DNA of 64,000 nt from Bacillus multifaciens (GTDB lineage: Bacteria > Bacillota > Bacilli > Bacillales > Bacillaceae_G). Under the pieces are notes generated by a model. The model did not search any database, had not been told where the DNA came from, and worked only from the letters and a program-made list of their open reading frames with translations. The position numbers and the translations under genes are program-made. Below, piece by piece: positions 16,978 to 21,752 of the stretch; the first letter of the stretch is position 1, and every line of letters begins with the position of its first letter. The stretch covers positions 1-64,000 of the forward strand of contig NZ_JAVBXD010000018.1 in the NCBI RefSeq assembly GCF_030756675.1, written 5' to 3'.

Positions 16978-17195
16978 CCTTATATATAAATTTCTTATCT
17001 CTTTTAATTTTTCGACATATCAGTCACTGCTATGCAAAATAAAGCATAACCGCTACTTGCTTGCTCCCTTTGTTTTAAACTTGGCATGTGGCAGGAAAAG
17101 GCCTTGACCGCTTCTATGCACGGCCAGATGCCCTTGTCCTCTCCTAAAAAGAAAAGAGGTTTTATGTCGGTTTTTCAACTTGCATTTACATAACA
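16978..17195 (+). repeat. MITE-like repeat, copy B
   Basis: An uninterrupted member of the family, with TTTTAATTTTTCGACATAT, TATGCAAAATAAAGCATAA, CTCCCTTTGTTTTA, the pair GACCGCTTCTATGC and GGCCAG, TTTTATGTCGG, and an end GCATTTACATAA. This copy is the empty-site reference for the bcr1 insertion in copy C. Confidence 0.7.
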
Positions 17196-17234: not shown

Positions 17235-17690
17235 TTACTCTCCCTTTTGTACATCATATTCCTCTCGCAAAATCGAATATATTTTCGTGTCTCGATACGA
17301 TCCCTTCACAAACATATCTTTTCGCATCGTTCCCTCATATTGCATTCCTAGTCGTTTCATCACTCGTTCCGATTGTGCATTACTAGCATGACACCCTGCT
17401 TCAATACGATTTAACTGTAATATTGCAAATCCATAATGAACACATGCCTTTGCTGCTTCCGTCGCAATGCCTTGTCCCCAATAGTTTGGCGATAATGCAT
17501 AAGCCACCTCTGCCTTATGATGATTCTTGTCATATTCGATGAAACCGCACGTCCCAATAATCTTTTTTTCGTTTTTCAGTTCTATTCCGTAAGCCGCTAT
17601 TTCTCCTTTTTCATATTGATCTAGGATCGACTGTATGAATATTTGGGAGTCCTGTAAAGTTTCATCTAAAATCGGCAAGGATACCTCTAC
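17235..17690 (-). pseudogene. GNAT acetyltransferase, C-terminal part, split by a tnpB element
   Basis: About 150 residues carrying the acetyl-CoA-binding core of a RimJ/RimL-type N-acetyltransferase: SPNYWGQGIATEAAKA (the Q/RxxGxG/A loop) and RVMKRLGMQYEG. The first strand and helix of the fold are absent here but are encoded at 19208-19346 on the same strand and in the same reading phase. The gene was therefore one GNAT gene into which the element at about 17.7-19.2 kb inserted. The open frame seems to continue a few codons into element DNA, so the exact left junction is uncertain. Confidence 0.8.
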
Positions 17691-17892
17691 TTCAATCGTG
17701 TGCAGGGCGTAGCCCAACGATAAGTGTGGGAGGAATTGCCGTCAGATACGGTATGGTACGTTAAAAATCGTAAGATTTTGTACCATATTAAGTATCTGAA
17801 ACTTCCACCTTGCCTCCTACTTCCTCCTATTTAGGTTATTTACTTTCACTAAAATTCCGATATAATATATTTAGTGAAAGGCGGTGAGAATA

Positions 17893-19008
17893 ATGTCTAC
17901 AATTACTGCGAAAATACAAATCTATGTTTCTGGCAATCAAGATGAAAGCTTAAAGATAACAGCTAACGCTTATCGTAAGGCTTGTAATTGGTTATCAAAA
18001 CATATCTTTGAAACAAAAAATCTAAATCAAATAAACTTGAATAACTTGTATTATTCTAACTTACGAAATCAGTTTGGACTAAAAAGCCAAATGGCTCAAT
18101 CTGTTATGAAAACAGTGATTGCTCGATACAAGTCAGCTAAATCAAATGGACATGAATGGTCTTTAATTGAATTTAAACTTCCAGAATATGACCTTGTTTG
18201 GAATCGTGACTACTCATTAACTCAGAGCCAATTTAGTATAAATACACTTGATGGTCGTCTTAGATTGAATTATGAACGCAAGGCTATGAAAAAATACTTT
18301 AATAATACTTGGAAGTTTGGTACTGCTAAACTTGTGCATAAACATAAAAAATGGTTCTTACACATTCCAATGACAAAAGAATTTACTGAATTAGATTACG
18401 CAGATGTAAACAATATTGTCGGCATTGATTTAGGAATCAACTTTCTTGCTACTACTTATGATAGTCAGGGTAAAACTACTTTCTACAACGGAAATGTTGT
18501 TAAGCATAAGCATGGTAAGTTTAAAGCTACTCGTAAACAGTTGCAAATGCGACAAACACCGTCTGCTCGTAAAAAACTAAAACAAATTGGTTCAAGAGAA
18601 AACCGTTATGTAACTGACGTAAACCATCAAATTACAAAGGCACTCGTTGATAAATACCCTAGAGGTACTATGTTTGTTTTAGAGGACTTAACAGGTGTTC
18701 GTTCCGCAACTGAAAAAGTACGGGTGAAAGACCGCTATGTTTCTGTTTCTTGGGCTTTCTACCAGTTCCGTCAGATGCTGGAATATAAAGCAGAAATGAA
18801 CGGACAGAAGGTAATTGTCGTAGACCCAAAATATACTTCTCAAACCTGCCCTAAATGTGGGCATATCAAGAAAACAAACCGTAATAAGAAATTACACACA
18901 TTCTGTTGTAAAAACTGCCAATACACGTCAAATGATGACCGTATTGGTGCTATGAATCTACACCGTAAAGGGATTGAACATATTGGTGTAGTTACTACAG
19001 GAGTATAG
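17893..19008 (+). CDS. tnpB: TnpB RNA-guided nuclease (IS200/IS605 accessory protein)
   Basis: A protein of about 371 residues, ancestor-type of Cas12. Catalytic RuvC residues look intact: Asp in VGIDLGINFLATTY, Glu in FVLEDLTG and Asp in NDDRIGAMNL. The zinc finger CPKCGH with CCKNC lies between the last two. In characterised systems TnpB uses an omega-RNA from the element's right end to cut DNA carrying a short motif followed by the guide sequence, which preserves the element after excision. I chose the ATG at 17893, spaced 7 bases from GGTGAG, over the GTG at 17884. The protein has full length for the family and no visible stop or frameshift. Confidence 0.92.
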   Translation: MSTITAKIQIYVSGNQDESLKITANAYRKACNWLSKHIFETKNLNQINLNNLYYSNLRNQFGLKSQMAQSVMKTVIARYKSAKSNGHEWSLIEFKLPEYDLVWNRDYSLTQSQFSINTLDGRLRLNYERKAMKKYFNNTWKFGTAKLVHKHKKWFLHIPMTKEFTELDYADVNNIVGIDLGINFLATTYDSQGKTTFYNGNVVKHKHGKFKATRKQLQMRQTPSARKKLKQIGSRENRYVTDVNHQITKALVDKYPRGTMFVLEDLTGVRSATEKVRVKDRYVSVSWAFYQFRQMLEYKAEMNGQKVIVVDPKYTSQTCPKCGHIKKTNRNKKLHTFCCKNCQYTSNDDRIGAMNLHRKGIEHIGVVTTGV

Positions 19009-19207
19009 CTCTTGTAGTAAGGGCGAAGTCAACCGTCCTTATGTTCCACCACACTAAGGTAGGAGAGCGTCGCTCGTTTGCACTACTGGGTAGGAATAAG
19101 CGTAGTTGCTCTCTATGAGGATAGAAGCACTGTCGAACTCCGACAGACGCAACCCGCCACTTCAAACGACCCCTAAGGGTGTTAAGTGGCGGATTGTTGA
19201 CGCGGAT
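18950..19207 (+). ncRNA. Predicted omega-RNA (right-end RNA) of the tnpB element
   Basis: The 200 bases after tnpB are GC-richer than their surroundings and strongly structured. The last stem is CCGCCACTT (19154-19162) with AAGTGGCGG (19184-19192), enclosing a small ACCC/GGGT hairpin. In known TnpB systems the guide RNA overlaps the 3' end of tnpB and ends with a guide of about 16-20 bases copied from host DNA beyond the right end. That guide would start near 19208-19211, in the interrupted acetyltransferase gene. The 5' end given is a guess. Confidence 0.6.
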
Positions 19208-19346
19208 ACCATACTGTATATGTCGCAATTTCTGTATTTGAAGCATATTCAAATACATCAGTTGCATCATCAATTGTTAACGGTCGTAAACGTAATCGTC
19301 CTGTAATAAGTGTTGGATATTTTTCTAAGATATTTTTATAGTCCAT
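19208..19346 (-). pseudogene. GNAT acetyltransferase, N-terminal part
   Basis: Translated from the ATG at 19344-19346, this strand gives MDYKNILEKYPTL, then GRLRLRPLTIDDATD and ASNTEIATYTVW, the standard beginning of RimJ/RimL-type acetyltransferases, open for 46 codons up to the element's right end. AAAGGAAATGACAGGA precedes the ATG. The continuation is at 17235-17690, in the same phase. The gene is inactivated unless the element is excised precisely. Confidence 0.8.
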
Positions 19347-19370
19347 TCCTGTCATTTCCTTTCTACATTT

Positions 19371-20039
19371 CTACTTGAAATGCTGTATAATGACTCCTTT
19401 ACCCTCTTCCACCTCAACCTCTGCAAGTGCCCCGTTTATAAATGTAATTTGCGGGGGCGTATGACCACAGTCTACGTCATAAATAATTGGAATTTGCAGC
19501 TCATCCATAAGTTCTTGGTATACATCTTCAGCGGTATATTCATTCACTGGATAATTCGCAGCACTGCGGCCAAATAAAATACCTGAACAATTTTCAAACC
19601 AACCAGCCAATTTCATTTGAACCAAAGATCGTCGTAAATCAGTAGTCGTTAACTCACAATTTTCAAAGTACCAAATGAACGGATCATCATTACAATATTT
19701 TTTCCGAAAATCTTGTACGTTACCAAATGGTGTGCCAATGAGGTGTCTAATCACATCGATACATCCGCCAAGCAATCGGCCTGTAATGTTCACATTACCA
19801 TTCGAAATTGTTTTCCAATTCGTTTCTTCTGTTAAGTGAAACACACACGGTGATGGATTATTATGTTGCCATTTCGCTTGATATTTCTCTGAAGAATACT
19901 GAATAATTGAATCCCCTGATTCCGTTGATAATACACTTTGCCACATTGCTGTTGTACGATCGGAATATTCGCCTCTTACATCTACAAAATTCGTTCCATG
20001 AGCAGTCGCTATTCCTGTTTTCTGTGAAAATAATTTGAT
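19371..20039 (-). pseudogene. S66 (LD-carboxypeptidase / MccF-like) peptidase, N-terminally truncated
   Basis: About 222 codons of an S66-family serine peptidase remain. GIATAHGTNF marks the middle of the protein, and GRLLGGCIDVIRHLIGT, FIWYFENCE, GILFGRS and DCGHTPPQ follow in the family's order. The complete family has about 300-350 residues; the N-terminal third, including the nucleophile-elbow region, is missing. An in-frame TGA lies at 20040-20042 and no start codon with a ribosome site is present upstream. The missing part is not found beyond the adjacent IS110 element, so this looks like a deletion or rearrangement end. Confidence 0.75.
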
Positions 20040-20073
20040 TCAGGGCACAATTTAGCTTTTTAATAATACATCT

Positions 20074-20106
20074 AGATCTTCTTTTTGTGTGTGAAACACG
20101 CAAAAA
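20074..20106. repeat. Hairpin between the S66 remnant and the IS110 element
   Basis: CTTTTTGTGTGT and ACACGCAAAAAG form a 12-bp stem with one G-U pair. It may end transcription of the transposase on the minus strand or mark the element edge. Confidence 0.35.
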
Positions 20107-20178
20107 GACAATAAGAAAGAAGACTACTGTTCTTTAGATATTTTTTCAGTAGTTGTGTATATGAAATTGGAAACTGGT

Positions 20179-21323
20179 CTATGCTAGTAATTTTGAGTAT
20201 TCAATAAATGCCGTTCGTTGTTTCAATATATGGTATATTACCTTAATTACTTTATGCGCAATGGCGATGATTGCTTTTCTCTTTCCTCTTCGTGCGGCTA
20301 AAGACCAGAATTTTCCTGATAACCATGTTTTCCGCATACGTGAAATGGCCCATGCTACTTCACAAAGTGTTGTTTTGATATGCGGATTTCCTTTTATAGT
20401 CCGGGTGCTTTTTTTTTACCGGCACTTTCATGATTGCCTGGTGATACACCTGCCCAAGAGGATAGATGCTGCGCAGAAGGGAATTGGCTCATTTCGATAC
20501 CAATCTCTGCGATGATACTTGCGACCGTGTTTTTTTTCACACCTGGTATTGTTAATAAAAGTTCCACTTGTTCCTGATACGGAAGTAATAGTTCATCTAT
20601 TCTTGCTTCTAATTGTTCAATAGCTTGTTCGAGAAATAAGATGTGATTCCATGAATGCCGAATTAAGAAAATTTGATGTTCGTTTAATGTGCCGAATAAG
20701 GAATCTGAAATATCTTGGGCTTTTGGCATCATTTTTGTGTGAATGGTCTCTTCGACATCTTGTAAATTCACGTATCCCTGTTCTACAAGACGAGTTAATA
20801 ATTTTCGTCCGGATACGCCAAATACATCAGAAATAACAGATCCTAACTTAATATTAGAACACTCTAATGTTTTTTGGATTCTGTTTTTTTCCGCTGTCAT
20901 ATCACCGATTACTTTTTTTCGGCGACGAGTCAAATCACGAAGTTCCCGAATATCCGCTGGTGGAACAAAACTCTTTTCAATCAATCCATATCGAAGAAGT
21001 TTGGCAATCCATTCCGCATCAGCTACATCTGTTTTTCGTCCAGGAACATTCTTAATTCGTTGTGCATTGGCAAGGGTAATATCAAAAAAGTCTTCTATAA
21101 TATTGTAGACCGGTTTCCAATATACACCTGTGCTCTCCATCGCAATATGAGTAATACCAAGAGATTCTAACCACCGAAGCATGTCAAAAAGATTCTTTGT
21201 CATTGTAGGAAATGTACGGACTTCCTTTATAAGGGTTTCGTCCGATGAACCAATTAAAATACAAACAACTATCTCTTTTTGATGTACATCTAGACCTGCG
21301 CAATGTGTGTGTAATGTATCCAT
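20179..21323 (-). pseudogene. IS110-family transposase with a -1 shift at a run of nine A
   Basis: The first frame gives 309 residues with the DEDD RuvC-like domain: GLDVHQKE, MESTGVYWKP and GRKTDVADAEWIAKLL supply the acidic residues. The Transposase_20 domain begins at LLTIPGVKKNTVASI and reaches GNHESAGKKK, then the frame stops. Shifting by -1 at the A run (20409-20417) continues with STRTIKGNPHIK, AISRMRK and AARRGKRKAIIAIAHK to a TAG at 20179-20181, the normal C-terminus. The gene is thus either broken by a one-base deletion, uses frameshifting or transcript slippage, or contains a homopolymer sequencing error. Confidence 0.85.
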
Positions 21324-21549: not shown

Positions 21550-21752
21550 TTCATGTAAGGGATGTGAGTGCAAAATCATGGATGTTTTTAGGGAAGGGCG
21601 AAAGCTTCTGGCCATGCATAGAAGCGGTCAGGTCCTTTTCCCTGCCACATGCAAAGTTTAAAACAAAGAGAGAAAGCACGTAGCGGGCACGTTTTGTTCT
21701 ACGCGGCAACGACTGAGATGTTAAAAAATCAAAGTGGATATACATAGAAAAG
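21550..21752 (-). repeat. MITE-like repeat, copy D (inverted orientation)
   Basis: Blocks of the family appear in reverse complement: CTGGCCATGCATAGAAGCGGTCAG, then CTGCCACATGC, AAACAAAGAGAGAAAGC, GCAACGACTGAGATGTTAAA, and an end ATATACATAGAA. It lies between the IS110 element and the ctpB terminator. Confidence 0.6.

What the first reader, a model, noticed from the sequence alone, without database searches (positions are those of the whole stretch)
17690..19346. tnpB-only element with intact nuclease and predicted omega-RNA, splitting an acetyltransferase gene
TnpB has all three RuvC acidic residues and its zinc finger; the 200 bases downstream are strongly structured. No tnpA is present, so the nuclease and guide RNA are maintained without their transposase. 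The predicted guide begins at about 19208-19211, inside the acetyltransferase N-terminal part, so the intact allele of this gene would be its natural target.
Basis: partly seen in the sequence, partly recalled or inferred. Interest (0 to 1): 0.7.

Follow-up and report, generated by a model that had tools for sequence, protein, structure and literature searches.

The report
tnpB-only transposon with its guide RNA
A common kind of small bacterial jumping element, carrying an RNA-guided DNA-cutting enzyme and its guide RNA but no transposase of its own, sits inside an acetyltransferase gene; some relatives have lost the enzyme and kept only the guide RNA.

Summary
The element is real, looks intact and is ordinary in kind: a 1,536-bp tnpB-only (IS1341-type) member of the IS200/IS605 superfamily at 17666-19201, not 17690-19346. 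Relatives in other genera share the DNA from a TTCAT (17661-17665) to a terminal TTGAC (19201), and the closest intact homologues of the interrupted acetyltransferase fit that junction with nothing lost or duplicated. The predicted guide starts at 19202, not 19208-19211; the inferred target-adjacent motif is TTCAT. TnpB (371 aa) keeps all catalytic and zinc-finger residues (30 of 30 aligned sequences). The right end is a well-supported omega RNA (z -6.2, covariation above shuffled and slid controls) whose first hairpin overlaps the end of tnpB. "Maintained without their transposase" over-reads the data: the host genome is not held, most related genomes carry Y1 transposases, and some tnpA-bearing copies share the ends. 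Most likely function: TnpB, guided by the right end, cuts copies of the locus that lack the element, so repair keeps it there (inferred, not tested). The unexpected part lies outside the window: tnpB-less relatives of 444-507 bp keep the ends and a structured omega RNA, in genomes with and without a TnpB of this family.

The parts
17666..19201 (+). whole tnpB-only IS200/IS605-type element, 1536 bp
   Evidence: Shared DNA boundaries in relatives whose flanks differ; junction agrees with the closest intact homologues of the interrupted gene
17661..17665 (+). TTCAT, insertion target and inferred TAM, just left of the element
   Evidence: TTCAT directly before a recognisable left end in 26 of 34 relatives examined (left ends judged by eye)
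17673..17741 (+). left-end subterminal hairpin
   Evidence: DNA fold -13.6 kcal/mol, z -2.2, 6 of 200 shuffles fold as well; core shared with some tnpA-bearing elements
17839..17866 (+). promoter-like site TTTACT-16-TATAAT before tnpB
   Evidence: consensus scan, 10 of 12 matches, one of 14 sites found in 17600-19400 against 6.1 in shuffles; not evidence of function
17893..19008 (+). tnpB, 371 aa, ATG start chosen; GTG at 17884 is an alternative
   Evidence: L001-L010 and L024 encode proteins 83-91% identical
18427..18429 (+). codon of RuvC D179
   Evidence: 30 of 30 aligned sequences
18682..18684 (+). codon of RuvC E264
   Evidence: 30 of 30
18937..18939 (+). codon of RuvC D349
   Evidence: 30 of 30; D348 is also conserved; assignment from the alignments to solved Cas12f chains
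18993..19019 (+). first hairpin of the omega RNA, overlapping the 3' end of tnpB
   Evidence: 6 of 11 pairs with double changes; covariation 0.375 against 0.220 in shuffles, 0 of 500 as high, at most 0.243 when slid
19017..19152 (+). omega RNA core
   Evidence: covariation over 19010-19201 in 20 sequences; model R1
19154..19192 (+). right-end subterminal hairpin; its outer stem is helix 7 of the counted structure
   Evidence: 88.4% of cells paired, 4 of 9 pairs never vary, 1 has a double change, so little covariation here
19197..19201 (+). TTGAC, right terminus
   Evidence: 32 rows: 29 GTTGAC, 2 GTTGAT, 1 ATTGAC; the search pattern selected for these
19202..19221 (+). predicted guide (first 20 nt of host flank)
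   Evidence: follows from the right end; one occurrence in the window at up to 3 mismatches
19202..19355 (-). N-terminal piece of the interrupted GNAT acetyltransferase
17235..17665 (-). C-terminal piece of the interrupted GNAT acetyltransferase

Best explanation
A tnpB-only IS200/IS605-superfamily element (IS1341 type) inserted as single-stranded DNA 3' of a TTCAT, by a Y1 TnpA supplied in trans, inside a GNAT acetyltransferase gene. TnpB is transcribed with its right end. It, or a host RNase, trims the transcript to an omega RNA of about 210 nt plus a guide of about 16-20 nt read from the flank (19202 onward). The RNP searches for TTCAT followed by the guide sequence, which exists only where the element is absent: an excised copy or an incoming intact allele. 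It cuts there, and repair from the element-bearing copy keeps or spreads the element. The occupied site is spared because TTGAC, not TTCAT, precedes the guide. Shown here: anatomy, boundaries, the target motif of the family, catalytic residues, covariation of the RNA. Inferred from ISDra2 and AmaTnpB (PMC8612924 and PMC10278001, passages): cleavage, RNA processing, TTCAT as TAM, the retention cycle. Movement in trans is inferred from shared ends.
For: Ends and flanks. Junction: the two gene pieces, kept apart, both match five intact homologues. In the three closest of them (L103, L104, L111) the matches are 9, 12 and 9 nt apart, exactly as a junction 17665|19202 predicts with no base gained or lost. 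Nuclease residues. RNA: (17 of 42 pairs with double changes; covariation 0.293 against 0.141 shuffled, 0 of 500, and at most 0.082 when slid). Mobility: four copies in Enterococcus lemanii, 98.2-98.8% identical in DNA, at different TTCAT sites. tnpA-bearing elements with the same hairpins, and one Y1 tnpA behind TTCAT plus this left end (L208).
Against: No element-free allele of this site was found: the host genome is not held and the nearest scored genomes by secA are only 78-79% identical (50 of 397 not scored). TAM, cleavage and RNA processing are untested. Two of five homologues matched by both pieces (L101, L115, more distant) are one codon off the exact spacing, one each way. 8 of 34 relatives showed no TTCAT at a recognisable left end. 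Four genomes with this TnpB (G003, G004, G009, G011) show only partial, broken or long-frame Y1 matches. The tnpA-bearing elements seen mostly have another apparent target (TTTAA) and end in TTCAC, and L208 has a different right end, so the trans transposase is not pinned down. The counted structure was derived from the same alignment, which favours it over slid versions.
Confidence: 0.8

Rival explanations
1. A dead relic: the element can no longer move, cut or make RNA, and is only passed on by descent.
For: Only one left end in the window; no tnpA beside it; no own genome to test for a partner.
Against: tnpB is open over its full length, the seven catalytic and zinc residues are kept, both ends and the RNA helices are intact, and a promoter-like site is present. 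An old relic would be expected to show decay.
Confidence: 0.12
2. The nuclease and RNA have been taken over by the host for another job (regulation or defence) and no longer serve the transposon.
For: Nuclease and RNA stand without tnpA; such exaptations of TnpB are known (recalled, no call).
Against: The guide is read from the insertion site, the RuvC triad is kept, the element lies inside a broken gene, and close relatives lie beside other sequences in different genera.
Confidence: 0.04
3. The boundaries of the first reader: left end near 17690-17699, right end near 19207, guide from 19208-19211.
For: The C-terminal ORF runs open to 17717, which makes the element's first 52 bases look like acetyltransferase.
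Against: 17661-17717 is shared by relatives at other sites; the bases after 19201 differ between relatives; the spacing in the closest homologues fits 17665|19202.
Confidence: 0.01

Closest known systems
IS1341-type (tnpB-only) elements of the IS200/IS605 family, as counted in Bacillus cereus genomes (PMC9956272, passages)
   Same: Solo tnpB element; common in the likely host group (112 of 152 B. cereus genomes)
   Different: That paper's elements were not compared with this one here; TTCAT does not occur in its main text
ISDra2 TnpB and its reRNA (PMC8612924, passages)
   Same: Pentanucleotide 5' of the element, no target duplication, guide RNA from the right end, RuvC active site
   Different: TTCAT instead of TTGAT; no tnpA; protein similarity weak (4.3e-10 with solved ISDra2 TnpB against 9.4e-27 with a solved Cas12f)
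Cas12f nucleases
   Same: Closest solved structures by sequence; NCBIfam Cas12f2 model matched at 107.5 bits, below its cut-off of 450
   Different: Transposon ends and a guide taken from the flank; no CRISPR array was looked for
PATEs (palindrome-associated elements linked to IS605; PMC3119063, PMC7290912, search listing only; their nature as gene-less elements is recalled)
   Same: The 444-507 bp relatives lack tnpA and tnpB and keep the ends
   Different: The relatives found here also keep a structured omega RNA; whether PATEs do was not examined

Membership tests
IS200/IS605 superfamily, IS1341 (tnpB-only) group | subterminal hairpins at both ends instead of terminal inverted repeats | tested here: met
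   left: (z -2.2, modest); right:
IS200/IS605 superfamily, IS1341 (tnpB-only) group | insertion 3' of a fixed short motif without target duplication | tested here: met
   TTCAT in 26 of 34 relatives; exact spacing in 3 of 5 homologues matched by both pieces, the other two one codon off in opposite directions; no natural empty site seen
IS200/IS605 superfamily, IS1341 (tnpB-only) group | tnpB present, tnpA absent from the element | tested here: met
   besides tnpB no ORF of 100 aa or more within 17666-19201
IS200/IS605 superfamily, IS1341 (tnpB-only) group | moved by a Y1 TnpA acting in trans | tested here: inconclusive
   Unbroken, nearly full Y1 matches of TnpA size in 9 of 14 and 3 of 4 related genomes; shared hairpins; host genome not held
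TnpB RNA-guided nucleases | RuvC D, E, D and four-cysteine zinc finger | tested here: met
   30 of 30; NCBIfam guided_TnpB above cut-off
TnpB RNA-guided nucleases | RNA-guided cutting next to the TAM | not testable with these tools
   bench work
omega RNA (reRNA) | conserved structured RNA ending at the right end | tested here: met
   no Rfam family reached its gathering score in the window
omega RNA (reRNA) | the RNA is made and carries a guide from the flank | not testable with these tools
   needs RNA sequencing
Cas12f (CRISPR) | CRISPR array supplying the guides | not tested
   No array search was run; the Cas12f2 model was below its cut-off

The most novel reading that the evidence does not exclude
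The family has given rise to a lineage of guide-RNA-only transposons: 444-507 bp, no protein, same TTCAT target and left end, a shared leader with a TATAAT- or TATACT-like box (by eye), and a complete omega RNA whose first hairpin keeps pairing through compensatory changes. They would load a TnpB made elsewhere with a guide for their own site, and so be kept in place by another element's nuclease: parasites of an RNA-guided retention system. In that light a copy like the window's is a nuclease donor, able to serve several guide-only copies at once.
Probability: 0.38. Interest if true: 0.65.

Novelty: new member of a known kind. Interest (0 to 1): 0.38.

Why it matters
The element itself is a clean, well-bounded example of a tnpB-only element: ends, inferred TAM (TTCAT), guide and target gene, and a covariation-supported omega RNA for which no Rfam family reached its threshold. 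The family is worth more than the single copy. Among solved structures its nuclease is nearer to Cas12f than to ISDra2 TnpB. It occurs beside RNA-only relatives, which makes it testable whether non-coding transposons borrow a nuclease with guides of their own.

Tried and rejected
One search failed because a locus id was given where a genome handle is needed. Plasmid and viral-contig searches found no relative; the phage search found only pieces covering at most 27% of the query. Searching the family and an even draw of the order of the nearest held genus for the acetyltransferase DNA found only distant homologues, best 66% over 328 bases (in one search only two candidates per listed genome were scored), so no element-free allele could be compared.

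Rows dropped: the first omega alignment had wrong coordinates for L127 and was replaced. The final one holds 20 of 33 candidate rows; left out are L007 and L010 (near copies of L009), L014 and L017 (long insertions), and nine shorter right ends (L023, L025, L026, L027, L029, L030, L046, L048, L057). The RNA model also left out L013. The hairpin count lacks L003, which the script's pattern missed. An element boundary at 17699 was rejected. CRISPR origin was judged only from family scores. Structure prediction was not used.

Paper searches. Passages of three papers were seen; the rest are listings. Recalled, from no call: work on TnpB promoting transposon spread in Geobacillus, standalone omega RNAs of IscB, the pairing of guide sequences with cleavage sites in TnpA, TnpB exaptation, and the B. 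cereus-group gene order by which I guessed the host.

Full report
What was claimed.

Boundaries. TnpB relatives were fetched from bacterial and archaeal genomes (best 80 of 85 kept, 78 distinct loci). In eight alignments that run the whole length (L001-L005, L008, L011, L024), homology with the window starts at 17656-17661 and ends at 19200-19205; in L007, L009 and L010 it ends at 19168, before a length difference in the right hairpin, and L006 aligns in two pieces. Printing both edges shows TTCAT at 17661-17665 followed by the same left end, and a right end GTTGAC at 19201, with differing DNA outside. TTCAT stands directly before a recognisable left end in 26 of 34 loci examined, of the 78 (judged by eye). 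The eight others are L015, L018, L019, L020, L021, L026, L064 and L072. The right terminus was read in 32 rows as GTTGAC (29), GTTGAT (2) or ATTGAC (1), found with a pattern that selects for these.

The broken gene gives an independent check. Its two pieces, kept apart, were searched against 23 loci; five intact homologues are matched by both. In the three closest (L103, L104, L111) the two matches are 9, 12 and 9 nt apart, exactly what a junction 17665|19202 predicts, with no base duplicated or lost. In the two more distant ones (L101, L115) the spacing is one codon longer and one codon shorter. So the element is 17666-19201, 1,536 bp, and the predicted guide starts at 19202.

Protein. TnpB is 371 aa from ATG 17893. 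It matches Cas12f1-like_TNB and OrfB_IS605 and NCBIfam guided_TnpB above its cut-off. D179, E264 and D349 and C319, C322, C339 and C342 are identical in all 30 sequences aligned (window plus 29 chosen relatives, 59-91% identical). Among solved structures the best match is a Cas12f chain (9.4e-27); ISDra2 TnpB is much weaker (4.3e-10).

Guide RNA. 19010-19201 folds at -73.2 kcal/mol, z -3.82, 0 of 200 shuffles as low. With the 3' end of tnpB and 20 nt of flank (18983-19221) it folds at -96.1, z -6.22, 0 of 200. On 20 aligned right ends (of 33 candidate rows), 94.9% of pair cells are standard pairs and 17 of 42 pairs have changes on both sides; covariation is 0.293 against a shuffled mean of 0.141 (0 of 500 as high) and at most 0.082 when partners are slid. 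A further hairpin at 18993-19019 overlaps the end of tnpB: on 22 sequences (18 distinct) covariation is 0.375 against 0.220 (0 of 500) and at most 0.243 when slid; two of the five measures are less clear, reached by 13 and 137 of 500 shuffles. Related sequences can exceed shuffles by descent alone, and a structure taken from its own alignment is favoured over slid versions, so these are strong but not absolute. No Rfam family reached its gathering score in the window.

Transposase. The claim that nuclease and guide are kept without their transposase cannot be made: no genome is held for the window. Y1 matches above cut-off occur in 14 of 14 genomes reached through relatives and in 4 of 4 further ones, against 5 of 14 control genomes. 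An unbroken match over nearly the whole domain in a frame of TnpA size (about 136-163 aa) is seen in 9 of 14 and 3 of 4. G010 has a shortened one; G003, G004, G009, G011 and G212 show only fragments, broken copies or long frames of 186-272 aa. tnpA-bearing IS605 elements share a left hairpin, a right hairpin or both with this family (L096, L083, L088), but with an apparent TTTAA target where a left end was seen and a TTCAC end. One Y1 locus, L208, stands behind TTCAT (L208:1283) and a left end like ours, but has a different right end and may be a hybrid. Enterococcus lemanii holds four copies 98.2-98.8% identical over tnpB and right end, 83-84% identical in protein to the query, at different TTCAT sites, so the family has moved recently there. 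tnpB-only elements are ordinary: IS1341 in 112 of 152 B. cereus genomes (PMC9956272, passages).

How it works. [quoted passage not shown] The parts for the same cycle are here with TTCAT, except tnpA. That TTCAT is the TAM, that the RNA is made, and that the nuclease cuts are inferences.

Beyond the window. A covariance model of the RNA core was searched in 397 genomes of the order (25 with a match at 1e-6; only 8 candidates per genome scored, so a floor) and in 14 related genomes (13 of 14). Together they give 30 distinct places above 100 bits; 29 were fetched. In 7 of 29 (L150, L151, L153, L175, L176, L177, L190) no TnpB matched within the stretch held; three more (L157, L178, L192) are cut by contig ends behind the 3' end of tnpB. 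L190 is a 328-bp internal deletion and L150 lacks a left end. The other five share an ORF-poor leader, which a pattern search found also in two further copies cut by contig ends in G212 (3 of 397 genomes in all; L177 escapes the pattern by mismatches). The elements measure 444 bp (A. alkalilacustris), 460 bp (four copies in G212, two read whole) and 507 bp (G139); the four read whole lie between TTCAT and GTTGAC or GTTGAT, are 82-88% identical between genomes and 97% within G212, and their longest ATG ORF is 39-45 aa. The left edge of L177 was not read. G212 and G139 have no TnpB of this family at 1e-30, although they have other TnpB-like matches (23, ten fetched, those that align 26-35% identical). 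Their first omega hairpin still pairs, in part through double changes. This is either a guide-only lineage using TnpB in trans, or the right end kept because TnpA needs part of it; the second does not easily explain conservation of the core away from the terminal hairpin, but the elements may also be young, and G212 shows no TnpA-size Y1 gene.

Host. By gene order the window looks like a Bacillus cereus-group chromosome (my inference from memory). By secA the nearest scored genomes include the two Ectobacillus genomes, 78-79% (50 of 397 not scored). Not settled.

Verdict. Real, ordinary in kind, better bounded than reported. The most interesting extension is the guide-only relatives.

Noticed in passing
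L175/L127 (A. alkalilacustris), L151, L176, L202, L204 (G212), L153 (G139), L177 (G074): tnpB-less relatives of 444-507 bp (or copies cut by contig ends) that share a leader and, where read, keep the ends and a complete omega RNA; G212 and G139 have no TnpB of this family at 1e-30.
   Followed up: partly
L190 (genome of Bacillaceae bacterium Marseille-Q3522): 328-bp internal deletion keeping the left end, the last codons of tnpB and the whole omega RNA.
   Followed up: partly
L150 (A. alkalilacustris genome G002): Omega RNA and right end without a left end, next to what looks like a permease reading frame (by eye); may be an assembly effect.
   Followed up: no
L208, 1283-1400 (G074): A Y1 tnpA with another tnpB stands behind TTCAT and a left end much like that of the window element, but with a different right end.
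   Followed up: partly
window 19371-21323: C-terminal part of an LD-carboxypeptidase (S66) followed by an IS110-family transposase ORF; the gene looks interrupted.
   Followed up: no
window 16996-17150 and 21585-21740: Inverted repeats of 104 and 57 nt, 77% and 82% complementary, on both sides of the element and the IS110 copy.
   Followed up: no
window 17740-17800: Palindrome-like stretch between left end and tnpB, conserved also in the tnpB-less relatives; role unknown, perhaps transcription control.
   Followed up: no
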